Program-made: the position numbers and the translations under genes | The notes under the pieces: model-generated | The model's input: the letters and a program-made list of their open reading frames with translations, nothing else | What the model was told of the DNA's origin: nothing | Databases searched by the model: none | Shown here: one piece after another, positions 42,932 to 63,974 of the stretch | How positions within the stretch are numbered: the stretch's first letter is position 1 | Layout of the letters: each line of letters opens with the position of its first letter | Assembly: GCF_003144195.1 (NCBI RefSeq) | Contig: NW_020290038.1 | Coordinates: 124,001 to 188,000 of the forward strand | Direction of reading: 5' to 3' | Length of the DNA: 64,000 nucleotides | Source of the DNA: Ceraceosorus guamensis | Taxonomy: Eukaryota > Basidiomycota > Exobasidiomycetes > Ceraceosorales > Ceraceosoraceae

Positions 42932-45900
42932 CTAAATATCCACGATTGGCGCATCATGCCTTCCATTCGAGGTGCTCGCCTCTGCTGCAGCGGCGGCGGC
43001 GGCGGCGGCGGCAGCAGCGGCCTCCGCTTCCACAGAGACGACGGCAGAAGAGACTCCTCTCGCATCCTCGTCTGCCTCCGAGATGACGGGAGGCGTAGGC
43101 GCATGGGTCGGCGTGATGCCCTCTTCTGCACTTTGCTGATCCGGCTGCTGGTTCACGTCGGTGACCACTGCTGATGGCGCTTCGCTTCCTCTGTCGATGC
43201 CCAGCGCACCATTCATCTGTGCCGTCGATTGACGCGGCGTGGAGGAGGATGAAGTCCGGCTCGCCTCTGCTGCTCCGTCTAGCGTCCGCGCACTAGCCAA
43301 TGGCGAATCATCCGAAGCGCCATCATCCGTCCGCGTCCGCGATCGGTCCTTGGCATCTGCCACTCTTCTCTTGCGCTCCGTCTCGCTCTCCTCCGTCATG
43401 AGCGGTATTCTGAGAGCAGACGAGAAGCCAGTCTTTTTGAAGAATAGGTAAAGGCTTCGAAGCAGCTCCGGTGCCAAGGCAGGTCGACTCAGAAGTTCGA
43501 CCGCAAGGGGGTAAAACATGCTGGCGTAGTGCGGAAAGACGCTGTCCTCGAGCGTGTCGCTGAAGCTGTCTAGTCCGGTAAATACTTCCGCAACCACCGG
43601 CGTCCAAGCTGCAATGTTTCGCGCCTGCGTCTCCGTGTCTAGCGGCAGGTACGCATTGATGATGTCCTGACCGAGCGGGACGAGCGTCTGCCGAACGCTG
43701 GCTCGCATGTCGCGGTGCGATGGCCGATCATCGTTGTGCATTCTATTCAGCACGCTGACGAGCGTCGCTGCTGAACTGCTCTCTTGCTTGAGCAGGTTGG
43801 GCAATTGCTTCATGAAGCCGACTTTCCATAGGGCCATTCGAAGCTCTTTGTCGGCATTGAAGCGACGCGAGAATCGATAGCTGTCATCGAGGACGTGCGT
43901 AAGTCGCAAGAGCTGAGCGGGCGGCATGACCTCGTAGACCGGGCCCTTTTGCAGGAGCTCGTGCGTCGTCTCGATCAAGAGCAACTGAAGAACGCATTTG
44001 ACAATGATCTGCTTGAATGCACGGCGACGCTGCGACTGAGTCATGAGCGGTGCCGGCGGCGCGTCAGGCGGAGGAGAGGTGATTGGAGCATTTGGCGAAA
44101 GAGGCGCCGCTGTAAGGCCATTGGTCACGGCACCTGAAGGTGCAAGCTCGGAGCGCGCCGATGTTGGGCTTGTGATGGTCTCTTCTATCCTCAGCGAGCG
44201 CTCGAACAGCTGATGCGCGGTAGTCGTGCGAAAGAGCTGCACAAACGTGTCGACTACCTGCGACCACCTGTCGGGGTTGAACTTGCGCACGTTTTTCTCC
44301 AGCAGCTGCTGCAAGCAAGACGTTCCGATGCGCGCGAGCGTGTCGTTCTCTAAGGGCAGTGCGTTGGTTTGTCAGCTCAATACCCTGCACAACGTCCCCG
44401 CAAATTTCTCACCTTGACAAATGCAAGCGCAGAGCAGATCCAGCAAGCCGGGCAGCAAGCGCTCCAACGTCTCAAAGTAGAATGTCCACAAATCGATGAG
44501 GTTTCTGAGCGCTTGAATCATTGTAGTCGATAGCCACACGCTCATATCCTCTTGGGTGCTGAATCGGGTGACGTCGGATCTGGATCGCAACACCGCAAAG
44601 ATGGGAAAGAGGACCTCTTTGCAGACAGTGTCCCAAAAGTCTGGCCTAAAGGTAGAGCCGTACTGCTTGAGGATCTCAAAGAGCGCATCCAGAGCCACTC
44701 GGCGCACTTCGAGATCGTCGCCGTTCATGATGACGTCGTAGAAGCTAAAGAGGGCTGGGAACCAGAAGCGAATCATCGGGTCGTCCGACATGGGCTGCGT
44801 TGCAGCAGGTCCTGGATCCGCCTCGGCGTCGATCGGGCATTCGGCTGCACCAAGCATCATGGGCACGACGGCTCGGAGCATGGACACGCTTTGAAGCGCC
44901 AGCCTTTGGGCATGCGTTGCCTTTGCAAAGTCCGTCAAGCACACGGTTCTGTGGTGGCGCGGAGGAGAAAAGGTGCATGAGTCGCCGGGGACACGACGCA
45001 ACGACGGCGCACCGCACCACTCACAAATCAGCAAATGCTCCTGCGGAAATGATGGCTCCAAAGTGCTCCTGATTCAGTTGCCGGACGAGCTCAAAGGCGT
45101 ACGTCGCCACACGCTCGGACGCTTTGGAGGCAGCGCCGAGCACGCCAAACAGGGTCCGCCAACCAGATCGCATATTGTGAATGCGGCTAGCGATCATCTG
45201 CTGCAAGCACTGCAGGACCATCTCTTTCGCTTCGGAAGATGCATTGTTTCGCATCGTGTACTCAAAGGGCTTCAAGAAATCCTTTTGGACTGCGAGAGGG
45301 GAATGCGCTAGTTCAGCCAGTGAACTTTATCGCATCTCGATCGCTCGCACTCACATTTGAAATTTTGCAATTCCTCCTTCTCCAGGAACCTAGCCGACAA
45401 TTGTCGCAGCGAATCCAGACCAAACGCCGATACTCTAGGATTGGGATGGACGCAGACCTGATTAAAGTGTTCGCCCAAGATTGCCCAGATGTTGGACCAC
45501 TCCAAACGGATCCTGCTCATGTTGTAGTAAGAAATCTCCACGAGCTTCTGCAGCGAGAACAAGCGCGGGTTGTCGCTCATGCCGCTCGATTGAATCTCTT
45601 CCCACGACACGTCCGACAGGCTCTGCACAAAGTCCACAATGGCCGTGCCTGAGAGGTGGGGCGTAGAGGAAAAGACCATGTCGGCAGCAATGGTCACTTC
45701 CCTCGACGCACCAGCTTGCACGACATCGTCCGTGGGTAGTGCAGCTCGAGGAGTAGTGCTCGCCGTGCGCGCCGCAGTCGCGCTGGCCCTTCTTCCCAGC
45801 TCCGGCAGCTGGCGCTCGTCCACACCTCCGCTGATAAGCTGAAAGCGCTCGAGCTGCGATACGCACGTGAGGAGCTCTCTCCAGCTTCCTTGCAGGTAAT

Positions 45901-48522
45901 TGCCCTCGGTCTGAGCTACGCCCAACAGCGCCTTGATTGCTTCCACATTTTTGCTCTTCATCTCGCCCAGATTGTTCAAAAAGGTGAACTTGGCAAGCGT
46001 GGTGACGAACGCGTTGCGTTCCAACTCCAGGCCAAAGAGGCTGACGATGCGGATAGCGTCTCTGAATCCTTCGAGGCACACAGACACCGTGTCCGCATCG
46101 TCGCTCTCCTGCATAGGACCGCTGATACCCGTCAAGAAGGCCATCCAAGCCACTTCGAACATGGGCCGCACATGCTCAAAGTGCGAAGCGGAGAAAAATC
46201 GTTCCGCAGCTGCTCGCTGATCAGGATGCACGCGACGCTGCGTGCGCACCATGGTTCTGAATAGCGCTTCCGTCTTGTTGGCCATGTCCTCACTCTGCAG
46301 TACGTACGCCTCTCGCTGGAGGTCTCTGCCAACTCCAGCGATGGCATTTGCCAAACCTCCGCCAATCGCGCCAGGTGGCAGAGCCGAAGCCAGCACCTCG
46401 TCCTTCATCTTGATCTCGTTGTTCTGAATCTCGTCGTAGACGCCCCTGACGTACTCTTCTGGCAAGCTCTTGCCATCATCGATGCCCGCATTGTTCTTGA
46501 GAAAGTCTTGCAGGGTCATGCGGTGCTTGATCTGCCGACTGTGAGCGTCCGTGTTGAGCATGATGACAGAGTACGCGAATATGTACGCAGTGTCTGTAGG
46601 CGCAGAAGCTTCGACTGTGAGCTGTCGAATGCAGCGCGAGCAGCGCGAGCAGCACGCGCCAATCACGACTCACCGGCGTTTGCGAACATCGTGGGGTTTC
46701 CCGCAACGTAGCGTTCTGCAAACTTGAGCATGTACCTGTCGATCTTTTGCGATTCGCCAGGCAGCCTGAAAGCCTGCAGAAATCTTCTGAGGGCATCGGT
46801 GAAGGGCATGTTGCTAAAATTCAAGAGGTCTACAAAGGCATGCATGATGGCAATGTTCTCCGCGTCGCCTTCGCCGAGGTACTCTCCGATCTGCGCCTTG
46901 TTCAGTCCATCTGTAAAGAGCAAAAAGTGGGCAACGTATTTGGGCTCACGGGCGCGGATGAAGCCTTGCTGCACGAGATACTCGATACCGCGCTTGGGCT
47001 TAAAGTTGAACTTTCTGATGCCTTCCAAGAGCGAAGTCTTTCGAGCCTTTGCGCTCTCGAATCGATTGGGATCATCGACGTTCTGGTCTGGCGTAGTGGT
47101 GGTGCCCGTAGCAGTGGCTGCACTACCGCTACCGAGGATGGGTGTAGCTGCTCCGCTCTCGATGCCCGTACTATGACGCGCCGCGTCCGCAGGGCCTTCT
47201 TGACCTCGGACGTCTTCGCTGCCTCGGGGAGAGTGCGTTCGTGTGCCATCTAGACTGCCTGCCTGCTGCTGCGGCAGACTGGCTCGGGATGACCATACCA
47301 CAAGGGATCGCAGGACGGAGCAGAGGCAGTCAAGACTTTGCTTCTTGAGGCGCATCTCCACTTGTTGGCCCGGGCCAAGGCTGTCCAGTTCTGCGCTGGC
47401 TGTGGTGGAGCCGCTCAAAGACGATGGCACGCTCGGTCCGCCCGAGGTCGAAGACTTTTGAGCAGCACCGGTCGACGAAGAAGCACCTGCAGGATCCCCA
47501 GAGAGTTGCGATCCTGGCGCCAAATGCGTCTGAGAAATCTTGCTGACGATGTTCATCAAGCGCTCGTAGATGTTGTCCAATGCGGACCGGTCGCAATCGT
47601 AGTTGAGATACAGCTCCACGAGGGCTTGCGGGTCTTGGCAGAGCCGGATGAGCACGCCGAGCAGAATGCTCTTTTGCTTCGACGTCGAGTTGCGCATCTC
47701 CAAGATGGGAAGAAAGATTTCGTTTAGCAGCACCTCGATCTCCCTCTTTAAGCGCGTCCGCATACCGCTGAGCACGAGCCAGAATATCTCGCAAGAAAGC
47801 TCAAACACCTGATTGACCGAGGAGACGGCATTGCGACTCAGACTGAGGCAGAGGTACTGCTTGACAGCGTGCACGAACTGCGTCTGCTCGCCCGTGGAGG
47901 CGCTATGAATGACGATGCTGGGATCAGTAAAGAGGGTCATGTGGGATTTGAGGATGGTGAGGATGAGGTGCAAGCTGAGCAGCTTGGATCGCATAGCGTG
48001 CGACTTGAGATCCCTCTCGCTGTTGCAAGCAAAGTGGAATGTGTGCGAGAAAGTGAGCCTCGACACGGGATGCAACCGAACAGCCTATTCCCTCCCCGCC
48101 TCGACGCGGAAACCCGCCTCTGCACTCACCTCTCCGCTCCGAGCGGCTTCATGCTGAGCTTGCATAGCGCACGCAAAACCAAGAATGCGTCCTTGACGAA
48201 CAGTTCCGCTTGCGTGATGTGAGCCTGCTGCAACAAGCTGGCGCCCGTGTCCCGTTCCGATGCGCCTTCAAAGGAAGCGCGAGCTTCGAGGGCTTGCAGC
48301 GTGACCCTCTCTTCTTGCTGCTCTGTCGAATCGTCTCTTCCATTCTGCGCCTTGCTCTCATCCTCTTCCAGATTCACCTCCTCATCCTCGTTCGCGTCCC
48401 GCGCTTCTGCGCGATCTTCCAAAGAGCTCAGCACTTCCTGACCCGGCCCGCTCAGAGGCGCCGAGGGCGTCTTGACGGCTCTAGGCGCACTGAGCAGATG
48501 CTCAGCAGATCCAGAAGGAGCG

Positions 48523-48554
<32 letters not shown>

Positions 48555-49661
48555 GCCCGATTTGGACTCGTGACCCCTGGGCACCCTGCCAAAGACGTGG
48601 TGCACCATTTGCGTGAGCACGCCCTGCGCGACGGCCTGGGTAGGAGCAGTCTTGGATAGCAGAAAGATGTTGTAAGTGGTGCGAACAGCTTTGAGCAGGC
48701 TGCTCTGATGCACGTGCACGCTGGTGGACAGGACGATGGAGAGCAAAGCCTTGACGACTTGCAGCTGAGCCTTTTCGTCCAGACCATCGTGAAACGCGTC
48801 GCACACTGTGCTGGTCACCGCATCCGCCAGCGCTTCCTGTCCCTCCACCATTGCGGGCACATCCTCTGCAAAGAAGCTGTACGACACCAGCTTGGCCACA
48901 CAGTCCAGCGCTGTGATGGTCAAGCTGGTGCTCCTCGTCTGCATCGCCAATCGAAGCGGCTCGAAAACGATGCGCGGATCCAGCTCCGCCCCTGCACTGC
49001 CCGGCGCGGAGGAGGAGGAAGCTGCTTTGACCATTTCCAACGCGCGAGTCGACGCTTCCTTGAGCGCCTTGGATGGGGCTTTGGATCCTTTGGCCTCCTT
49101 GGAAGCAGAGATGGTGTCGAGGGCAGTAATGACGAACACTGCGCTGCCCTTGTTCAGCGATGACATGGAAGATCGAGAGTGCACGGTGGTGGAAGCGGCT
49201 GTGCTGGCCACTGAGGATCTCCGAGACATTTCGCTGCCATCGTTCAGAGTGGGAGGAGCGGAGGCGGAGGCGGAGGCGGAGGCGGAGGATGGCGCACCGC
49301 TCCCGCTCTCTGTAAGCGGCGGATCCTTTGCAGGAGGGGCAGGGGAAGCGTCGTGCGGTAAAGGTGCAACGGGCTTTGACAGCTCAGCAGCCGTCGCTTC
49401 ATCCTCTGCGGGCGCATTGGCGGCCTGTGTTTGAGATGTTTCCGAGTCTCTGCTGACGCCATTCGGCTCGGCCAAGGATGATGTGCTGGGTCGCGAGATG
49501 GAAATGTCGGGCACTTGAACGCGCTCCACCGTGGCCTCTTGCTCTTGCTCATCACGCACATCCTGCGATGGTGATGCCGCGGCTTCAGCTTGCCGTTGCT
49601 GCTGCTGCTGCTCCTGCTGCTGCTGCTCCTGCTGCTCCTGCTCCTGCTGCTCCTGCTCCTG

Positions 49662-49708
<47 letters not shown>

Positions 49709-49826
49709 GCTCCTCTGCTGCCTCTTGGGACATACTAGGAACATCGACCATCACCTCGGGCGCGACGACTGGCAAGACCGATGTGCCAGAGGTGGGCAGT
49801 CCAGGCTTGTCCTGCGATTCCGACAT
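42932..49826 (-). CDS. SEC7: Sec7, large Arf guanine-nucleotide exchange factor
   Basis: Sec7/BIG-type ArfGEF of the trans-Golgi network, 2,166 aa. Six exons: 48130-49826, 48019-46674, 46593-45355, 45289-45025, 44948-44413, 44349-42932 (read on minus). Domains in order: a Gln/Glu-rich N-terminal tail (residues 35-78), DCB from about 220, HUS with YLNYDCDRSALDNIYERL, the Sec7 catalytic domain at about 886-1080 (FNFKPKRGIEYLVQQGFI, FRLPGESQKIDRYM with the glutamic finger, YIFAYSVIMLNTDAHS), and HDS repeats to the end (NFKFQKDFLKPFEYTM, LENDTLARIG-type region). The second to last residues include a 14-Ala run. All exon frames close and each junction restores a conserved motif. It drives Arf1 activation and vesicle budding in secretion. 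Confidence 0.96.
49590..49722. repeat. CTGCTC-type repeat coding Gln/Glu tract of Sec7
   Basis: CTGCTC and CTGCTG hexamers in the N-terminal coding region, giving about 40 residues of only Q and E (EEQQEQEQEQ...). Antisense frames give long Leu runs that are artefacts. Confidence 0.9.
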
Positions 49827-51875
49827 GACCGGCGGCCGCCTCAAGCGCGAACGGGATGGGTCAAGGGTCTAGTGCGCACTCGTGACTGCTCCCTCTCTGC
49901 ACTAGAAAGAGTCGTGAATGCGCCGCGTCGCTCGCTCGTTGGTCGTGAATGCGTGTCAAGTTGTATCGAGGCGCACAGATGCCCACCTGCAGGCTGCGTG
50001 AAGCAAGATGGGGGGGGGGGGGGGGGGCAGCAGCGGAGCGCTGCAATCGAGTCAAGAAAGCTTCGAGAGATGATGGCAGATGGAATCGTGACTGCTGCCT
50101 GAAGGTGGCGGTGGCCAGTCGATGTTGGGCACAGCACGTGCGCGGGTGGATGATGTGTACAGCAGCGAGTTTGGAGTGGTGGACCAAGTGCAGACAGACC
50201 GCAGTCACGATTGATACCTGCCGTTCGTCCAGGAGGCTTGGATCGCGATTCGCGATGCGTGCGATGCGTGCCCAGCAGGCAGCAAAGCAGGCTTCCGATC
50301 AGATCTCAAAATTCCACGCCGGCAACACGCGCGCGCGCACGCACCACACTCACGCAGCTGCACGGCATGGCGCGCGGCCTACACAACAGTATGTATAGTG
50401 AGCCGTCGCGAAGGCGAAGCTGCCTGGTGCGTGCGTGCGTGCGCGGGGGCGCGCGCGCGCGCGCTCTTGTGTGATGATGGCTATACAGCAGCAGCAGCAG
50501 CAGCAGCTAGCATCAAATTTGACGGCCACCGCAAAGAGCCCAACACGAGTCACGTGAGTGCGCTACTTGGCAAACGAGCGACTCGATCGCGACTGCTGCC
50601 CAACGCAAAATCACACCCCAATCCTTGAGTGGACAGACTGATGAGACTCGAGACGAGACTCGCGACTGCTGCAGACATATCGCTCGATCGCGAGCGTGCG
50701 CGTAAAATTCGTCGTGAGCAAGTTGTAGAATACGCGTACGGCGCAGCAGCAGCAGCGCTTTCGCCCTGAATGATGCCCGAAGCGACGCGCGCGCGCGCTT
50801 ACCCCGGTTCTGCGCGCGTGCACAACCGGGGCTTTTCCCTGCGCTGCGCTCTCGTACGGCAACTATACCTCTCATCAGCGCGCGAGTCAGTCTGAGTGCA
50901 CACTCACGACTTCTTCTCGACTGACCATCGCGATGGGGACCCTCCTGTCCACCCTGCATGGCCTGACCTTGGATCGCTCTGACAAGCTGTTGTTGTGTGC
51001 GAGCCTGTCTGATCCTTCTGCCAAAGCGCTGCCAAAGCGCTGCCAAATCGCTGCCGCTGCCGCTGATGCTTCATCGTCCGCTGCGTCTCGTCTGCCCCGA
51101 AAAGCTGCGTGCATGGGCGGGCCTCTTGACGGCGCCTAGTCGAAACAAGATTCGTCATGTTTCCAAGCATAGCTCTCGCATCAAGAAAACGAGGCGCATC
51201 TTCATTCGTGCGTTTCGCTATCGTTGTGCATGTGGTCGAGCTTCTCCTTGCTCTGCGCTTGAACCCATCGTATCAGGCTCAAAGGGACTAGCGAGGGGAT
51301 CAAGGCGAGCGAGGTCAGGTAGACATCCACAAGGGTCCGCCTACATATACGTGCGCCTTTACAAATCACGGATGGTGGGAGTAGTCGTGAGTCGTGAGTG
51401 TGCCCTTCAGCACGAGTGCGCGCCCCAGCGAGTCCGGGTTTCCGCCAAATGAAACCTCGGTACGCGGTACCGCTGAACTGGCCTATGCAAACATCGGTTC
51501 AGCGACACACGCATCACAAAGTTCAGGCCCTGTTTGCAAAAAAAGGGACATGGCGGAACACGCAGTGTTCGCGACAGCGGCAAGGGCAACCCGCAAGAGG
51601 CGAAAGGGTCGGGATCAACCCGATTTCCGCCCGCGCTCCTGTGAGGCCGCCCTTGCCGCACGCATGCCCTGATTGCCATTCCGAAACCGTGGAAAAAATC
51701 GAAGCCGTGCGTGGGAACTAGGGAGGCGGAATACATGATGTGTGGGATGCGAGTTGCTACAGGGAAGATGTAGAGTGAGCAGCGAATGGAATCCAGTTCC
51801 TCTGTTGCTCACATCAGCTCGTGTTGTGAATTGAGTAACTGTGGATGAGCGCGAAGCGAGCCAATGATCGACATT
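49827..51875. other. SEC7 promoter and GH128 3' flank
   Basis: About 2.05 kb. Includes ACTCGTGACT (49877-49886), AGTCGTGAATG elements, a 17-G run at about 50010-50026, GCGTGCGTGC and GCGCGC tracts near 50430-50462, (CAG)n near 50488-50508 and GTCGTGAGTCGTGAGTG at 51384-51400. No gene recognised. Confidence 0.55.
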
Positions 51876-52987
51876 TTACATGCCAGCAATCATCCTGAAC
51901 AGGGGAGTGGCGTTGTTGCCGTTGGAGAGGCGATTGACCTCCGACACGCCCTGCAGGTTCTTCATCGCTCCAAAGGGCGCGTATCCCTTGACGTAGTCTT
52001 GCTTGTCCATCCAGCTCACGATCTGTTGCTGGAACGACCACACTTGGTCCTTGGAGCATTGAGCGCCACCGTTAAAGTTCTGCGATGTAAAGAAATGGTT
52101 AGCGCCGTGTTTGAGGCACGTGTTCACCGTCACGGACGCCGAGCACTCACCTGGCAAGCGTATTCAGTGATCCAGACTGGCTTGTTGTAGCTCTTGTACC
52201 AGTCCTCGATGTACTCTTGCATCTTGTTCGCGCTGACATCGTAGTAGTGGAGCGAAATGGCGTCGAGGGCTTCAAAGACGTCAGGGCAGACCTTTTTGAA
52301 TTGGTCGTACCAGTCCTTGCCGTTGGGAGCAGAGGTGGTGGAAGGACCGATGAGGTAGTAACCGTGCTTCTTCTTGAGGTCCAGCTGGTACTGACGCATC
52401 AAGCTGCAGGTGTCGCTGGGGTTCATGTCGGCTTGACCAGATTGGTTGACCTCGTTGGGACCCATGGTGCACTTGTCGCCGTTGTCGCCGCCTTCGGGGT
52501 TGTCAGTGACCTTGGACTTGTACTCGCTAAGCTTGGCTCCAGCTCCAGATCGTCCCCACAGCATGGAGCAGAACAGCGTGTCGCCCATGTCTGTGCCCAT
52601 CTTGGTGGGTTGCCAGGTGTAGGCCCAGTTGACGTTGCCAATCTTGAAGTTGTTAAAGTCCATGCTGTTACCGTTGGGCCAGCAAAGACCGGCCTTGCCC
52701 TTGAGTCCCTTGGGCTTGGTGCCAGAGACGGGAGCATCCTTTTGAGAAGTCTCGTTGGAAGTGTTGCTGGCATCGTTGGAGTTTGTGCTGCCGCTCTTGG
52801 ACTTTTTGCTGCTCTTGTGACCCGAAGCGTACTTGGAGGCGCCCGTGGTGGCGCACTTCTTGCTGCGACGAGCGTGGCGCGCAACAGCGTGAGGGCCATT
52901 GTGGATGGCGTTGTGCTCAGACGCGGAAGCGACGACGAGCGCAGCGTTGGCCACGATGGCTAGGATGAGCATGTGAACGAACTGCAT
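51876..52987 (-). CDS. Secreted GH128-type glycosyl hydrolase (Asl1-like), probable beta-1,3-glucanase
   Basis: Two exons, 52151-52987 and 51876-52079; 346 aa. Signal peptide MQFVHMLILAIVANAALVVA, then a Lys/Ser-rich linker (SSKKSKSGS) and the glycosyl hydrolase catalytic domain from about residue 95 (LCWPNGNSMDF, NVNWAYTWQPT). The predicted acid/base Glu lies in GPNEVNQSGQADM and the nucleophile Glu in WITEYACQ, the two signatures of this TIM-barrel family; LHYYDV and the C-terminal KGYAPFGAM are also typical. Members cut beta-1,3-glucans of fungal walls. The intron follows ACQ directly and frames close. It is the first of four adjacent secreted-protein genes at the right end. Confidence 0.92.
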
Positions 52988-55900
52988 GTCGAATGTATGT
53001 TCGTGTGCGTGGACGGGTAGGGATGTGTGTATGTATGCGCGGGATGGGGAGAATCAAGAGATTGCGTACAGAACGATCGTGTTGGCTTGAGAAGCTTCGA
53101 TGGGACGTGCCGAGGACGTGCGACGAGGGGCTTCCGAGGTGATGCGAGTTGTTGATGTCTTGCTGTCGAGGTGACGTGGGTGCGGGAAGCAGCACGGAGA
53201 GAAATGGCTTGGAGAGGCAGAGAAGGGTTGAGGAGAGTGGTGTGCGGAGTGAAGAATCGCAAGAGAGAGTCAGATCAGGACGTCGAGCCTTGAAGAGCTG
53301 TCTTGGGTCGTGCGTGAGGGTGGGTGTTGGAAGGATGAAGGGTTGCGGTTGAGGGGGGTGCGTCCAAGCTTGAGATTTGGGTGGGAAACTGACAATGCGA
53401 GCGAGCGAGCAACCTCGATGGGCAGGGCGGATGCAAAGCAAAAGGCCCAGCGCGGTGCGGCGCGGCATGCAAGCTTCGGCACACCTGCTCGCTGGCCGGA
53501 CGCTGCTGGCGATTTGCATCCTTTTTCGCTCTGGCATCCGCGACCTCGTGCTGCCATGCTTGATGCGCAGCCTAGGGCCAGGATTAGCGTGCACACGCTC
53601 GAGGTCGCTGGAGCAGTCTGGGTGTAGAGTGGTTTTGGACAGGCGTTCATAGGGCTCCTGCATGACTCGTGTGCACGGTTTGCGTACGTCTGACCCGCGC
53701 CTACCCGCCGAGTGAACACCATGCGACCATGCAGCAGCGGGCCTCATGCTGCATCACCTCGCGCGATGGAGGCCACGCATGCATGCATGCACGCAGCGGC
53801 ATCGGCTGCTGGTGCTTGGCTGCTCGCTTCTTTGGCCTCGATGCAGGGGTTGATGGGGCAGCAGAAAAGAGGGGTGCCTTCGCACGGTCAACATGAGCCC
53901 CTTCTGCCTTGGCTGACACCACATATGGCGGCTGGTGATTCGGTCAGAATTGTTTTGCGGGCTTCAACGTACGTCCGACGCCCAGGTTTCATGCAGCATG
54001 CGTCAAAGGGATGAGAGGGGTCCCATGCCTTTTGTCTCGGCTTCCGCCAGCAGTCATCGTGATCGAGTGCCGCTGAATTGTTTGTGTGCGATGCGCAGCT
54101 GAGACACCGCAAGTGCAGTAGGTATGTGGGCAATCTGCAACGGTACACGCGCGCACGGCATACATCAGTAAGGTGGTGTGCGCGGAGGCAGCGCTTTTGC
54201 CCTCTTACACTTGGTGACAAGTATACTACCGAGCTCATAGCGTCCGCGCCTGTTCGTCGCCGGCGGATGATGGATGGATGACCTTGCACGCTGTTATATA
54301 AACATCCTGGCAGAGATGGCCTGAAATAGACCCGAGCATCCATTTTGGGATCCGCTCGGTTAAGTCAGGGCGGACTGTCAGGGGCAACGATGTTAGGACA
54401 CGATGCAGACAAGTGAAGGGGGCCGCAATCTTGGGCCTCGAAGTCATCAACTCGAGACGGTCTCGCACTGGCCCTGCTGATCGCCGAGCGAGCGGCAAGG
54501 ATCGAGCGCGCGCGCGCGCGTGTGGATCGAATGATGGAAGAATCAGGGGCAAATGCGAGGGAGGTCTTAACGCGCACGAGGTCTGTTCTTTCTTGGAGCC
54601 AAATTCGATTCAAAGCTTCCCGCCGCGCTGGCAATCAATTCGAATCAAATTTCAGACTCAAAACTCTGCATCATCATCAGGCACAATTAACCACCACGCT
54701 GTCGCGCCGCGCGCGCCCGCCTCGAATTTGTGACACCCGCGTATGATGCAGGCAGTTGTGATTATACACCTTTGTCCCATCCGCTGCTGCTGCATGCTGC
54801 TGGTGCTGCGCCGCCGAACGCGCGCGATGCTCGAGCGTGTGCCGCGCGAGGCGCACCTTTCTCGAGCTCCGAGCTTGTGCCGCAAGGATGCATACAGACA
54901 TTGACGGTGCGCGTGCCGGTTGCCCGCCGCTCAAGGGAGTCAAACCTATATACAACCCTCGTGTCAGCGGCAGGGAGCGTACGTCCATCTCGCGTTGCGC
55001 TGGTCGAAGCGCAACCCTAAGCTGCATGTCTGCAGAAGAACACCGCGCTGCTGTGCGTGCGTGCGTGCGTGCTTGGGATTTATGAAACTCTTGACTGTGG
55101 ACGAGCTCAACGCGTGGTCGCGCTTGACTGCCTGTGTCCATGCCGCCAGTCGATATGCACTTGGGCGCAAGATCCACGAGGTATTATTGCGATTGGATAT
55201 ACCGGTACACATGCCTCTCTCTTTCTCTCATACGTATACCAAGGCGCTGTCGCGACACGGCTATGACACAAGCATGGCCGATCACGACCTCTGCTTTCAT
55301 GAACATGTGCGCAGCAGTCGCGCGAGCTGTGAAGAGTACTGTCTTATCCAAGAGTTGCCGCTTCTATGCGTCTGAGCAAGACGCGATCCGAGTAGGGGGG
55401 GCCGAGTAGGGGGGCCTTTACACGCTATGGATACCGCGCTCCCATGAAGTCCGCCAGCACGATCGGAGCCTAGGAGCCTTGCGCGCGCGAGCAGGGTTCT
55501 CCTCGCGCAGTCTCAACCTTCACAGTCAAAGGTCAGCGTCGCCATTCACGATTCGAGCATCCGGAGAACACAGCGCGAGGCCGTGTGGACTGCGCAGCAA
55601 CCCACTCGAGTGCAGTGGCGAAATGGAGCAAAAGTGTTCAAAGTGCTGCCCACCACGCCCACGATTGCATCAAATTTTCAAGATGCTGCCCGCATCGATC
55701 ATCACTTACGGGGGGGACCGCGTAGATTGCAAAAAAGGGGCCGAGGGTACTGCGCGCATACACAAGGTACGAGCTCGGCGCGCTGAATTTATCTGGCAGG
55801 ACAGTGTAAGCGGGCGGACTATCTCGAAGCGCCCTGAGCCTCTCCGCTTGAGCGCATTCGCATTCGAGGGGTACAGGATGTCGGACTCGTCGGCGAACGG

Positions 55901-58569: not shown

Positions 58570-59682
58570 ATGTCGCTTCGCATTCGTGCCTCGCTTGGTG
58601 TGGCATGTGCTGCCTTGGTGTCGGCAGCAACCCTTGTACTTGGCCAGCCTATACACGTGTACCCTGCAGAGGGTTTAGCCGACGGGATCACAGACCACGA
58701 ACTCAAAAACATTGCCCAAGCAGCCGAATTTCACAAAGACTGGCACTGGAAGTCGATTGGGCAGGAGACGAATCATTTGGCAAAGGCGACAAAGTTCGAG
58801 GTGAGCATGCCGAGCGCTGCTGCGGCGCTCATCGACCAGTCTTCTTTCCCGAGGATTGGCTGACGTTGCGTGCACCAATGAATAGGTCCTGCGTGGCTTT
58901 CAGCTCGAGCACGATCCCGTCGCGCCAACCAGTCGACAGGCATATGTTCGAGGCATATTCAGATCAGACGATGGCGAACCTCTGAATGTCGCTCATCAAG
59001 ACGTCAAAGACGGCAAGCACGGCGACTTGGCATCCCACGCTCACGGAGTTCCCCTGGCTCCTTATCAGCGCTTGTACAAGAATGGCTATCGCTACGAAAG
59101 GAATGCGGCACCCCAACGCAGCGATGGGCCCAATTTCAGTCCGCATCGGCGAACAAGCGTCTTTGTCAAGCCGCCTTTGGGACTTGGCCCACGAGACCAC
59201 GAAGCCGAAAAGCTGACTTGGGCGGCTGTCCAGCGATGGCATCACAATCTCAAAGACTTGAATGCAAACGACGTGCATCACTACGAGGTGAGCGAGCGTA
59301 GGAAGCAGGCGAACGCGCGTCACCCGGCTAAAATGCTGTACCTCTTTCCTACTGTCAGATGCTTCACTTGCTGAAACCGCATCCCGAGACGGGAAAGGCG
59401 TACACTTCGGTTCTCGCATGGGATCATCAGGAGCGTCTGCTCTCCAGCCAATCCAAGCCGGGGACGTATGTGCACGAGGTGCCCCTGCTGCTACCCTCGC
59501 CAGAAAAAGAGGGAGCCGAATCCGTCTTGGGACTACATCCATCGGTAGCAAAGAAGATTACGTCCAGCAAACCTCTCAGCGCTGACGCAAGACCGTACAT
59601 TCCAGTGTCACAATCGAGAGCCTCCAGCTCACGTGGCTCAACAAACGTCGCGGCACACACGCCAGGGGAGACTTTGCATTAG
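58570..59682 (+). CDS. Secreted protein, unrecognised family, paralogue B
   Basis: Three exons, 58570-58800, 58886-59287, 59359-59682; 318 aa. The signal peptide is clear: MSLRIRASLGVACAALVSAA, cleavage likely near VLG/QP. The mature part reads ELKNIAQAAEFHKDWHWKSI, NHLAKATKFE, VLRGFQLEHDP, HGVPLAPYQRLYKNGYRYER, VHHYE/MLHLL, TYVHEVPL and LSADARPYIP, each matching paralogue A. In the 35-residue block at the end of exon 1 about half the residues are identical, so the copies are not recent. Conserved His and aromatic residues (HW, HHY, KNGYxYER) could form a binding or catalytic site, but I know no such family. The gene faces the repeat-protein gene across 218 bases. Confidence 0.84.
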
Positions 59683-59900: not shown

Positions 59901-62900
59901 CTACTCCCGATCGCTTGCAAGTGATTGTTCACGAACGTCGCTGTCGCCACGCACGAGACTCGGTCCTCGAACAAGGGATGAAGGGGCAGTGCTGCTTAGT
60001 TTGGGCTTGCCGAGGATGGATAATAGCAGGCGTGAGGTGCCGTGGACCAGACCGTGGTCGCGAATGGATTCGGCTTCTTTGCGCAGCGAAACGTCTCTGC
60101 CCGAAAAAGCTTCTGGTGATGCGGTAGGCTCGCGCGGCCTCTTGGCAGGTACGATTCCCCAAACTTTGTCGCTGGGCACCTTGCCCCATCGCAATAGTCT
60201 ACGTTGACGCGACAAGGTCCTGGCGCTGCCTTGTCCGAATCCCCTGAGTCCATTGTGATAGTTCATGCGCGGCTCGGGCAATAGCGAGTCGACTTCATCC
60301 GTCGACTGTCCCTCGCGAGCTAAGCGCTGCTTTTGTCGCCACAATGTTCGACGCGACCCCTCTCCGACCGCTTTTCTGGCGGGACCTCGACGTTTCATAC
60401 CCGGCCAAATCTTTTCAACCAAGTCAAATCGTTGAGCATTTTTCAACGTCTCGCGGTGCCCGTACTGCACTTTGGGTTGTCCTGTTCCGATTGGCACGTC
60501 GGCAAATTTCCCCTTGAGAAGCGCCTGTGCTTCCTCTTTCGCTTTCAGCAGCTCTTCCTCACCAGATCTCTTTTGGAGGGCAGGCTCCTCGGCGACGTTT
60601 GACGAGGCAGTCTCGGCTGCTGATGATCTGGCAGAAGAGGGCGCAGCCCAGGGCTTCGGAAAGGTGGTGTCGTACTGCAAAACAGGTCCCGGCTTCCGCG
60701 GCGTTCTCCGATGTTGCGGCTCTCTCGGGCTTGGCGCGGTGTAAGTAGACTGCTCCACGGACGTGGTGGGTGGATCCTGCGGCGGCCGAGGTGCACTTAT
60801 GTCACCCAAAGGCTGATCTCGACTGGCTCTCCATTTCCTGGCCTGGCCAACGAGCGCCTTTAAACGTTCCGATCCTTCGTAAAGACCCTTTTCGCGAAGT
60901 CTGGACCCCTCTCTGAGTAGCAGTTCGTGTCTGTAGGCTCCCGAATTCGACGTGCCTTTAAATGCTGGCACGAAATTTTCGACCTCCTTTTGCCTCTCTG
61001 GATACTTCCAAGGGACTAGAAGATGGATGGCGTCGTTGTTGAACCCGCCTATTCTCAGCGCTGTTCGCTGCCGGGTCAGTGTGCTATGATTGCCCTTGCC
61101 CCAGGGAAGAGGCGCCTTCCCCGAGTGCTGCCTTCTGCTCGGTAGCTTGTCGATCGACTCGGCTTCGCCCTCCTCTACGCGCGCCCTTTGACGCTGCCGC
61201 CAGAGGGTGATTGGCGCACCAATTCCGTCGGGCAGCTTTGGTCTGCCGCGTTTGGCTCGAGACATTTCCTGATCCGCGGGCAAGGCGCCCTCTTGACGCT
61301 GTCGCCAGAGGGTTGACTGGGAGCCAACGCCCAGCACGTTCTTCTTCCGACCGGCGTTGAATTTCGGCGCCAGCGCACTCGCTTCACGCTCCGAGCTAGA
61401 CTTGCGCAACCAGCTTTCGCCACTCTCGACTTGTGGCGGTGCTGCCACACGAGAGGTTCGAGGAGCGGCCGCTATCGAGCTGCGAGGCGCACCAGAATCC
61501 ACCGCGGAGCTGTACGCCAGAGAGGGTCTACCAGTCTTGGCGGCCTTCGCACCCACACTCAGCAGATCGCCTTCCGCAAGCCCTTGCTCTCGAATTCGTT
61601 GCGCTTTTCTCACCGTGCTGCCGTAAGCTTTCAACGTAGCGGCTGCGTAAGGTGAAGATGCGTCTTTCATATGTGCACCAAGCCTGCCCATACTGCGATT
61701 TCCCGGAACTTTTTTCCAGACATCATCTTCACTGTAGTTTGCCAGCCGCAAGGCCTTGCGATCCCTGTACCGCCGATCGGCGGCTGCGCGCAGCAGCCGA
61801 TGCCTTTGCAGTCGTTCGTCGGTCATTTGGGATTCGGACAAGCGCGACCTGCCGTCCGGCAACACCTCGGCAACGTGACAAGCCGCGTCTAGCCCTGCGA
61901 GCCGTTTGCGCTGGCGAGAGATCGTCTTTCGACAGCCTTGGCCTAGCGCCATGGGCTTTGGGCCGTGCTTTTTAGTCCGGGAGCGCCATGCATCGTACGC
62001 GGCAGCCGCTTTTTCGAATGCTTCAGGTTCTGGTGGTGCACGTTTCTGCAGCCGACGAGCTTGGGACTCGTTGGGATCTACGTAGGTGACTTGAGAGCGG
62101 GGCCTTTTCGCCTTGCTCTGGGGGCTCGACGCACTAGACTGCGCTTGCCTCGACACGGGCGGCGAGCTTCCTTCGATTTGTGCGATGCCAAAGCCCGGTC
62201 TCGCGTACGAGGGTGCTGCATGGTCAACCTTGCTTGCAGCGAGAGCCGTGCGGTCGTCCCTGCCCTTTGAGCGGGATTTCTTCACTTGCCAGCGCGCTGA
62301 CAGCGGTCGAAGAGCGTCAGCAGACTTGATCACCCGTTTCACGTCGCGCAGGGCGGGTGGCAGGTGATCGCCGGCGTCAGACGACGCGTCGTCTTGATCA
62401 GGATCGACCCATGGCCTCTTTCGAGCTTGACGTCTTGGACGATTTGTGGCCAGCGCTGCTGGCCCCGAGACGGAGCTCATAGACGTGCTCGCATCCACAT
62501 GCTTGCCAATGGCGCGAGCCGTGGCGAGGGCATGCGCTCGTTGAAAGAGGGACCTTTCAGCGTCCGAGCTGGGCTCATTATCCCAGTGCAATTTTTCAAG
62601 CTGGGGCGCAATGGCTGCGAGTCCATGCTCTTTGACTTCCGCCGCCTTTCTGTCTCGCCATTCGTACCATGAGTTTTGTGCGGATGACAACTTGGCAGGA
62701 CTTGGCCGTTCGGCTTTATATCTCGAGGCTGATCGCGAACCAGGGACGACTTGCCAGACATGCTGTGGGAGGGACCCCGCTTCGCGCAGGATGCTGCGGA
62801 CCTTCCACCTTGCCAGAGTAGTTCTGCGCCTTGCTTTCCAAGACAGGCCGGGTTCAAGGAAATCTTTGTGACCGCGGTGAAACTCTTTGAGCTCATCGGC

Positions 62901-63974
62901 AAGACCGGACTTTTGAGCCTGCTTTACGATTCTCATTTGTCGAAGGAGAGTGCGCTCCCCTCCCTCACCGAAATCTTTAGCGGTGCGCCCGGGATTGTCC
63001 GGGCGGTGACGCCGTGAAGCCTCTTGTACCAGCTCATAGACTGCCTTTGCCTCGTTCAAGGCTTCCTCATTCATTTGCTGACCTCGCTTTGTCAGCTGGG
63101 CAGCGAACGCGGGTTCTCCTTGGAGCGAACCTCTGGAGGAGGCTGCGTCGAGGACTTCGTAGCGAGGAGTCCGGGCTTTGCGAATGGTGTTGACATGCCA
63201 AGCAGGTCTGAACAGAACGTGCGCAGGGTGTGTGTTTTGCTGTAGTGGCGTGTGCGGAGGAGATGCCGCGCGGGACGAAGATGCGTGCGCTGTAGACGCA
63301 CCATCCCGAGACTCTGGCGCCTGATCGCTAACAATGGCGAGTCGTTGACGTTGCCTTTGGCGGGTTTTCGATGAGCCTCGGCCGGTCGGTAGGCGCGGCC
63401 GACCTCTAGCCGGCTCGAGATCGCGCGATAGGTTTGCTGAGCGCGACTTGTATGGGCCATAACCGCGTTCAGCTGGCGCCGATGTGTCGATGCGCTGACC
63501 ATCGACGCGAGTGAGGGAGCGCAATTTTGGGTGCACCTCCAGCGCTCGATCGAGCAGACCTTGCGCGCGGAGTATCTTGTGCTGACTGTAGAGCGTCCGC
63601 CTGTTGCCACTCCCCAAAGGCACTCGATTTGCGTGACCAGCACGATATAGCAACTCGACTTCGTCCGCGCTCAGCTTGGACACTGGTTTCGATTTCAGCT
63701 TCTTGGCCATCGCCTCCTTTCGATTCCTCTCGTGCTGCACTCGAGTGCGATAAGCGGGCGAAGCCTTGGAGGAAGTGGACTCTATGAGCTTTAAAGATTT
63801 TGACACTGCATCCTCGCCTGCTCCTCGGCGGCGCAAGCATCCGAAGCACGTCGACAGTCCATCGTCAATGGTTCGCTCACTGGCGATGTGCGAGTCATGT
63901 CGATCGAGTGACCACTCCGCTGCGGCGGTCGCACACTGCGCAGCAGCAACGTAGAGGAGCAGATGCGCGCGCAT
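59901..63974 (-). CDS. Large basic repeat protein with signal peptide and AT-hook-like motifs
   Basis: Single open frame of 1,357 aa, very rich in Arg, Lys, Ser and Ala. It begins with a signal-like segment (MRAHLLLYVAAAQCATAAAE). At least nine copies of a degenerate motif G-x-G-x3-T-[LI]-x-R-Q-[RK]-x2-L occur along its length: GSGNRRTLYSQHKIL (about 63575-63620), GRGSSKTRQRQRQRL, GEGGERTLLRQMRI, GQGCRKTISRQRKRL, GVGSQSTLWRQRQ, GIGAPITLWRQRQ, GKGNHSTLTRQRTAL, GEGSRRTLWRQKQRL and GQGSARTLSRQRRLL. A second unit, ReqGLxEGxxLL, often follows. RGRPRLP and KRGRPKLP resemble AT-hooks. Open frame over 4 kb with stable codon use argues it is real. I recognise no family; secreted DNA- or RNA-binding effector is one reading, a nuclear protein with a misleading N-terminus another. 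Confidence 0.75.
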   Translation of the reverse strand: MRAHLLLYVAAAQCATAAAEWSLDRHDSHIASERTIDDGLSTCFGCLRRRGAGEDAVSKSLKLIESTSSKASPAYRTRVQHERNRKEAMAKKLKSKPVSKLSADEVELLYRAGHANRVPLGSGNRRTLYSQHKILRAQGLLDRALEVHPKLRSLTRVDGQRIDTSAPAERGYGPYKSRSANLSRDLEPARGRPRLPTGRGSSKTRQRQRQRLAIVSDQAPESRDGASTAHASSSRAASPPHTPLQQNTHPAHVLFRPAWHVNTIRKARTPRYEVLDAASSRGSLQGEPAFAAQLTKRGQQMNEEALNEAKAVYELVQEASRRHRPDNPGRTAKDFGEGGERTLLRQMRIVKQAQKSGLADELKEFHRGHKDFLEPGLSWKARRRTTLARWKVRSILREAGSLPQHVWQVVPGSRSASRYKAERPSPAKLSSAQNSWYEWRDRKAAEVKEHGLAAIAPQLEKLHWDNEPSSDAERSLFQRAHALATARAIGKHVDASTSMSSVSGPAALATNRPRRQARKRPWVDPDQDDASSDAGDHLPPALRDVKRVIKSADALRPLSARWQVKKSRSKGRDDRTALAASKVDHAAPSYARPGFGIAQIEGSSPPVSRQAQSSASSPQSKAKRPRSQVTYVDPNESQARRLQKRAPPEPEAFEKAAAAYDAWRSRTKKHGPKPMALGQGCRKTISRQRKRLAGLDAACHVAEVLPDGRSRLSESQMTDERLQRHRLLRAAADRRYRDRKALRLANYSEDDVWKKVPGNRSMGRLGAHMKDASSPYAAATLKAYGSTVRKAQRIREQGLAEGDLLSVGAKAAKTGRPSLAYSSAVDSGAPRSSIAAAPRTSRVAAPPQVESGESWLRKSSSEREASALAPKFNAGRKKNVLGVGSQSTLWRQRQEGALPADQEMSRAKRGRPKLPDGIGAPITLWRQRQRARVEEGEAESIDKLPSRRQHSGKAPLPWGKGNHSTLTRQRTALRIGGFNNDAIHLLVPWKYPERQKEVENFVPAFKGTSNSGAYRHELLLREGSRLREKGLYEGSERLKALVGQARKWRASRDQPLGDISAPRPPQDPPTTSVEQSTYTAPSPREPQHRRTPRKPGPVLQYDTTFPKPWAAPSSARSSAAETASSNVAEEPALQKRSGEEELLKAKEEAQALLKGKFADVPIGTGQPKVQYGHRETLKNAQRFDLVEKIWPGMKRRGPARKAVGEGSRRTLWRQKQRLAREGQSTDEVDSLLPEPRMNYHNGLRGFGQGSARTLSRQRRLLRWGKVPSDKVWGIVPAKRPREPTASPEAFSGRDVSLRKEAESIRDHGLVHGTSRLLLSILGKPKLSSTAPSSLVRGPSLVRGDSDVREQSLASDRE

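What the first reader, a model, noticed from the sequence alone, without database searches (positions are those of the whole stretch)
59901..63974. Giant repeat protein with signal peptide and repeated G-x-G-x3-T-L-x-R-Q-R motif
Seen: one 4-kb open frame, N-terminal hydrophobic signal-like segment, at least nine degenerate copies of G-x-G-x3-T-[LI]-x-R-Q-[RK], a second short unit (REQGLxEG), and two AT-hook-like GRP motifs. Known: AT-hooks bind the minor groove through the GRP core. Inference: an internally duplicated nucleic-acid-binding protein of unknown family, possibly exported, and possibly an effector that acts in host nuclei. I know no described fungal family with this repeat.
Basis: partly seen in the sequence, partly recalled or inferred. 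Interest (0 to 1): 0.85.

Follow-up and report, generated by a model that had tools for sequence, protein, structure and literature searches.

The report
Two-gene repeat family in Ceraceosorus fungi
A large, highly basic fungal protein built from nine to eleven copies of an unclassified short helical repeat turns out to be one of two related genes shared by two Ceraceosorus species; it most likely binds nucleic acid inside the fungal cell, and the evidence that it is exported into plants is weak.

Summary
The repeats are real. The 1357-codon frame (59901-63974, -) carries nine clear and two tentative copies of a ~42-residue A unit (loop ending in GxG, helix TLxRQRxxLRxxG, helix DxVWxLVP) and four B units (RkxAxxIREQGLxEG). 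Four runs of A units each end in a B unit; two first A units have none. The window is Ceraceosorus guamensis. The only relatives found are the C. bombacis orthologue CBOM_04549 and a divergent second gene in both species (IE81DRAFT_26949 / CBOM_06549) with the same units. No Pfam, NCBIfam, PDB-sequence or fold match was found. The 11 A and 4 B units have counterparts in C. bombacis (A 90% identity, A-B links plus B 93%, the rest 77%), so the array is old and constrained. The AT-hook-like GRPs lie inside two A units. The signal peptide is unproven: codons 32-52 look non-coding and hold a frame-preserving 63-nt candidate intron, 53-88 look coding, 1-31 are ambiguous. Best reading: an intracellular, probably nuclear, multivalent nucleic-acid-binding protein of a two-gene family so far seen in one genus. 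Nucleic-acid binding is inferred, not shown. The exported host-nucleus effector idea is poorly supported but not excluded.

The parts
59901..63974 (-). open frame, 1357 codons plus stop; member 1 of the repeat family (orthologue CBOM_04549 in C. bombacis)
59904..63710 (-). residues 89-1357, collinear (with indels in linkers) with the annotated C. bombacis protein from its M1 to its last residue
63918..63974 (-). signal-like hydrophobic N-terminal segment, residues 1-19 (status undecided)
63818..63880 (-). candidate 63-nt frame-preserving intron (GTGAGC...CAG) over residues 32-52, where codon statistics are non-coding
63555..63671 (-). A unit, residues 102-140
63330..63449 (-). A unit, residues 176-215 (contains GRPRLP)
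62910..63062 (-). A unit, residues 305-355
62772..62924 (-). tentative degenerate A unit, residues 351-401; the stretch after it (VWQVVPGSRS) matches other superunits
62589..62672 (-). B unit, residues 435-462
61887..62021 (-). A unit, residues 652-696
61731..61868 (-). tentative degenerate A unit, residues 703-748, followed by DDVWKKVPGNRS
61548..61631 (-). B unit, residues 782-809
61275..61406 (-). A unit, residues 857-900
61170..61289 (-). A unit, residues 896-935 (contains KRGRPKLP)
61038..61178 (-). A unit, residues 933-979
60852..60935 (-). B unit, residues 1014-1041
60303..60443 (-). A unit, residues 1178-1224
60177..60317 (-). A unit, residues 1220-1266
60018..60101 (-). B unit, residues 1292-1319
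62097..62108 (-). KRPR basic cluster (NLS-like by pattern), residues 623-626, conserved in C. bombacis
60132..60143 (-). KRPR basic cluster (NLS-like by pattern), residues 1278-1281, conserved in C. bombacis

Best explanation
The gene encodes one of two paralogous multi-repeat proteins found so far only in the genus Ceraceosorus. Shown: nine clear plus two tentative A units and four B units; four runs of two or three A units (tentative ones counted) each close with a B unit, while the first two A units have no detected B; linkers vary; the same A units and at least one B unit occur in a second gene; all 11 A and 4 B units have a counterpart in C. bombacis. Predicted: each A unit is a GxG-capped basic helix (TLxRQRxxLRxxG) followed by a short second helix (DxVWxLVP). 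Inferred: the basic helices of many units together bind nucleic acid, probably in the fungal nucleus (KRPR clusters, high positive charge, almost no Cys), as a multivalent chromatin- or RNA-associated protein. This reading needs no signal peptide, and the one proposed is unproven.
For: Repeat statistics. A profile made only from the window's units gives seven hits in the paralogue piece, six of them 8.4 to 28.9 bits and one 4.1; the best of 1000 shuffles is 3.9. Paralogue and its orthologue. Unit-wise conservation: A 429/479, A-B links plus B 237/256, other aligned residues 409/529 identical. Each of the 11 P0001 A units has its P0002 counterpart as best match, 158-243 against at most 86 for the next. 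Conserved basic helix: K/R in 12 and 14 of 17 rows at positions 9 and 11, Q in 16 of 17 at position 10, one row mis-anchored. Helices predicted with pLDDT about 73-86.
Against: No homology, fold or experimental link to any nucleic-acid-binding family. Structure models are weak overall (mean pLDDT 65.3 and 68.7, pTM 0.31 and 0.51; a short first helix in the second model only ~52). High Arg content also occurs in disordered scaffold proteins. In the paralogue some A helices read QRxEL rather than RQR, so the charge pattern is not uniform. The module-versus-linker contrast is weaker in the paralogue (316/357 and 106/119 against 475/566). A real signal peptide would argue against a nuclear protein.
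Confidence: 0.45

Rival explanations
1. The A and B units are helical-hairpin protein-binding repeats; the protein is an intracellular scaffold and its positive charge is incidental.
For: Two-helix prediction per A unit; units kept 1:1 between species with variable linkers fit a scaffold with several partners; in the B units charges of both signs are mixed (sequences).
Against: The conserved A-helix positions are R, Q, R rather than varied; net charge +107.
Confidence: 0.3
2. The protein is exported through the signal-like segment and acts in the host.
For: MRAHLLLYVAAAQCATAAAE looks like a signal peptide; starts at least as hydrophobic occur in 6 of 255 first-ATG ORFs of the window (this one included), in 1 of 82 of the reversed window and in 11 of 1481 of shuffles. 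The candidate intron keeps the segment in frame, and residues 53-88 look coding, so translation probably starts upstream of M89.
Against: Codon statistics of residues 1-31 are ambiguous: own-gene model 41 of 177 in-frame windows as low and 40 of 354 off-frame as high, pooled model 19 of 177 and 57 of 354. The orthologue's model starts at M89 (possibly a model error). P0004 has no comparable start. Few Cys, NLS-like clusters, unit-for-unit conservation with a species known only from healthy leaves.
Confidence: 0.1
3. The A units derive from the helix-turn-helix DNA-binding part of a transposase, amplified after capture by the host genome.
Against: No Pfam transposase or HTH match for the whole protein or for nine units singly; a loop of more than ten residues would have to be inserted in the turn (seen).
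Confidence: 0.1

Closest known systems
IE81DRAFT_26949 (C. guamensis) and CBOM_06549 (C. bombacis), hypothetical proteins
   Same: Same A unit; one run of A units clearly closed by a B unit and a second possible one; no Pfam or NCBIfam match above a cut-off
   Different: Several A units have an extended PPGPVPTR loop and end in WIPxLCP with paired Cys instead of DxVWxLVP; no GRP motif; the last two A units of the C. guamensis protein have no B unit
AT-hook proteins (HMGA type), recalled
   Same: Two RGRP[RK] cores
   Different: Embedded in A units and absent from 7 of the 9 clear units; not called by Pfam at E<=10, though so short a model can be missed
Modular helical nucleic-acid-binding repeats (mTERF, PPR, TALE), recalled
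   Same: Tandem short helical units; LRxxGxSxDEVxxLVP looks a little like an mTERF repeat (by eye)
   Different: No such Pfam hit; the GP...GxG loop and RQR helix are not features of those families as I recall them

Membership tests
AT-hook | RGRP[RK] core standing as its own motif, recognised by Pfam AT_hook | tested here: inconclusive
   two cores present but inside A units; no AT_hook match at E<=10, a short model that HMMER filters can miss
Known Pfam domain or repeat family | score above a curated cut-off | tested here: not met
   only LID (15.2 of 25 bits) and LprI (9.5 of 22 bits), both below cut-off; units singly: LID E 0.018 in 1 of 9
Relative of a solved structure | sequence or fold match | tested here: inconclusive
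Secreted fungal effector | translated, cleavable signal peptide | tested here: inconclusive
Secreted fungal effector | in planta expression and translocation | not testable with these tools
   no expression data held
mTERF / PPR / TALE | match to the family's profile | tested here: not met
   no such Pfam family listed at E<=10 for the protein or for nine units singly; HMMER filters drop most matches above about 0.1
Two-gene Ceraceosorus A/B repeat family (defined here) | A units and at least one B unit in the second gene detected by profiles made from this gene | tested here: met
   A; B: 13.1 and 12.8 bits in P0003 and P0004 against a shuffle maximum of 5.1 in 1000; the other putative B units there scored only 3.9 and 3.6

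The most novel reading that the evidence does not exclude
A modular nucleic-acid-recognition repeat that arose in one fungal lineage: each A unit carries its own readout (RQR helix, variable GP...GxG loop), and the fixed order of individually conserved units reads out a defined DNA or RNA target, analogous to TALE, PPR or mTERF arrays but unrelated to them.
Probability: 0.1. Interest if true: 0.8.

Novelty: new variant of a known kind. Interest (0 to 1): 0.42.

Why it matters
It defines a repeat family with no entry in the libraries searched, from two paralogous genes in two species, with unit boundaries good enough to make constructs. It is an example of long repeat arrays kept unit for unit across speciation in a lineage-restricted gene family. 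If the A unit binds nucleic acid it is a compact new binding module; if not, it is still an undescribed helical repeat.

Tried and rejected
Rejected: G-alpha P-loop resemblance (A6 profile against PDB, best E 0.78), which is only the GxG...T.[RK]QMRI look of one unit. Below-cut-off Pfam matches LID and LprI. Ketosynthase and ATP-synthase b matches (E 0.22 and 0.31). Fold searches with two models gave nothing above noise; this does not show a new fold. Upstream alternative reading from the ATG 82 nt before the first Met: not coding-like over 150 nt (-0.46 and -0.10), although some 20-codon windows 40-240 nt upstream, in two frames, score weakly positive (up to +0.19), so another first exon is not excluded. 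Other A-unit hits in the window's six frames: none convincing; the best is 12.7 bits over 10 residues in a frame at 45053-45187 (E 0.0075). ARAGORN missed a tRNA, apparently with an intron, that Rfam found. Literature: locus names not found; searches with Ceraceosorus and genome, repeat, lineage-specific or effector terms gave listings only. Paralogues beyond the two genes: own-genome searches with P0001 (E<=0.001) and P0002 (E<=10) gave only this gene and, the C119 place; searches with the paralogue itself did not complete, so more copies cannot be excluded. Each protein search scored only the ~7990 candidates sharing most words, within set length ranges, so distant relatives in other genera may be missed. 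The C119 match (25% identity, E 0.113) was not significant by itself; the profile made it so. One search's comparison windows overlapped its training data; the cross-validated repeat is, and the report uses its numbers.
Full report
What was checked. The frame at 59901-63974 on the minus strand is open for 1357 codons. The motif GxGx3T[LI]xRQ[RK] occurs 6 times strictly and 7 times loosely, and in none of 1000 shuffles. A profile from nine anchored copies finds the left-out copy above all 500 composition-matched shuffles for 8 of 9; the ninth (residue 336) is equalled by 1 of 500. Iterating over four proteins gives 37 A units (11, 11, 8 and 7 in P0001-P0004), lowest score 24.7 bits, with a decoy maximum of 7.1 bits in the last round. 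The first round, with the window-only profile, has 28 of these at 9 bits or more (9, 9, 6, 4) against a decoy maximum of 3.9. The unit at 703-748 and its P0002 counterpart entered at 7.1 and 8.4 bits when decoys reached 5.7; the one at 351-401 entered through its P0002 counterpart at 7.0 bits when decoys reached 7.3. Both are therefore tentative, the second more so.

Architecture. The second short unit is real and is linked to the first. Four A-plus-B superunits (367-470, 712-815, 945-1049, 1233-1330) resemble each other pairwise: shuffles reaching the score were 0, 15, 1, 1, 0 and 0 of 1000. For B units alone they were 0, 42, 6, 0, 2 and 1 of 1000, so B431 against B1011 is not convincing by itself. 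For the three superunits where an A anchor was set, the distance from GxG (or its equivalent) to the GL of the B unit is 71, 71 and 61 residues; for one in the paralogue it is 67. The first two A units (102-140, 176-215) have no detected B unit. The two RGRP[RK] motifs lie in A units at 191 and 910; the third GRP (815) is not kept in C. bombacis.

Relatives. Three database searches scored 7986, 7991 and 7989 candidates. Apart from the window's own protein, the first (E<=0.001) and second (E<=10) return only CBOM_04549 of C. bombacis. The window-only profile finds seven A-unit hits in the C119 frame, six of 8.4 to 28.9 bits and one of 4.1; 1000 shuffles reach 3.9. The B profile finds one unit per paralogue (13.1 and 12.8 bits, decoy maximum 5.1); a second, at the expected place, scores only 3.9 and 3.6. 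So this is at least a two-gene family, not a singleton. More copies cannot be excluded, because the genome search did not complete. No Pfam or NCBIfam family reaches a cut-off.

Conservation. Between the species the A units are 429/479 identical, the A-B links plus B units 237/256, and the other aligned residues 409/529 with 78 gap columns; the 88 N-terminal residues have no counterpart in P0002 and are left out. All 11 P0001 A units have their P0002 counterpart as best match (scores 158 to 243; the next best at most 86), and the four B units are found in both. Duplication thus predates the species split, and each unit has been kept. For the paralogue the contrast is weaker: 316/357, 106/119 and 475/566; 7 of its 8 A units have a counterpart, the eighth (1048-1090) lying beyond the end of the C. 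bombacis model.

N-terminus. With cross-validated codon models, residues 32-52 look non-coding (0 of 179 in-frame windows as low, in both models), residues 53-88 look coding (0 of 352 off-frame windows as high, in both), and residues 1-31 are ambiguous (own-gene model 41 of 177 in-frame as low and 40 of 354 off-frame as high; pooled model 19 of 177 and 57 of 354). A 63-nt GTGAGC...CAG segment, divisible by three, covers residues 32-52. A model trained only on other long ORFs of the window shows the dip less strongly: 1 of 124 windows as low at residues 21-50, but 16 to 25 of 124 at windows from 26-55 to 41-70. Hence translation probably starts upstream of M89, and the C. bombacis model, which starts there, is probably short. 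The C. guamensis paralogue model also starts later than the C. bombacis one, while its frame is open for 1538 codons. Whether the signal-like segment is the first exon is undecided: equally hydrophobic starts occur in 6 of 255 first-ATG ORFs here and in 11 of 1481 in shuffles.

Structure. AlphaFold2 on window-only alignments of units predicts two helices per A unit with pLDDT of about 73-86, but unit packing is uncertain (means 65.3 and 68.7, pTM 0.31 and 0.51). Foldseek and VIA-align found nothing above noise.

Function. The helix TLxRQRxxLRxxG, the charge of +107, the KRPR clusters and the near absence of Cys point to an intracellular nucleic-acid-associated protein. This is inference from composition and pattern. 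C. guamensis is known only as an asymptomatic leaf epiphyte and C. bombacis is a pathogen of Bombax (passages of PMC11687029 seen); the array corresponds unit for unit in both, which is not what a host-adapted effector would be expected to show, but does not exclude one. That this family is not in print rests only (search listings of an open-licence library).

Noticed in passing
58570-59682 (+): Convergent neighbour, apparently with introns, starting with a signal-like sequence (MSLRIRASLGVACAALVSAATLVLGQP); its first exon has only a below-cut-off Pfam match.
   Followed up: partly
L002 6099-9253 (+): Next genes or exons upstream: small Cys-rich exon with a signal-like start, DUF7107 above cut-off and a weak Dickkopf_N match.
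   Followed up: partly
L002 4850-4956 (+): tRNA gene (Rfam, 41.7 bits) about 0.9 kb upstream of the frame, 107 bp for a 71-position model, so probably with an intron; ARAGORN missed it.
   Followed up: no
P0003 residues 434-439, 504-510, 587-592, 1055-1060: In the paralogue four A units end in paired Cys (LCPxxxC type, or CWIPHLC), suggesting metal binding or disulfides that this gene lacks.
   Followed up: no
46666-49868 (-): Two adjacent open frames with DCB, HUS and Sec7 domains, probably one ARF-GEF gene with introns.
   Followed up: no
52133-53053 (-): Glycosyl hydrolase catalytic core (Glyco_hydro_cc, E 2.1e-38).
   Followed up: no
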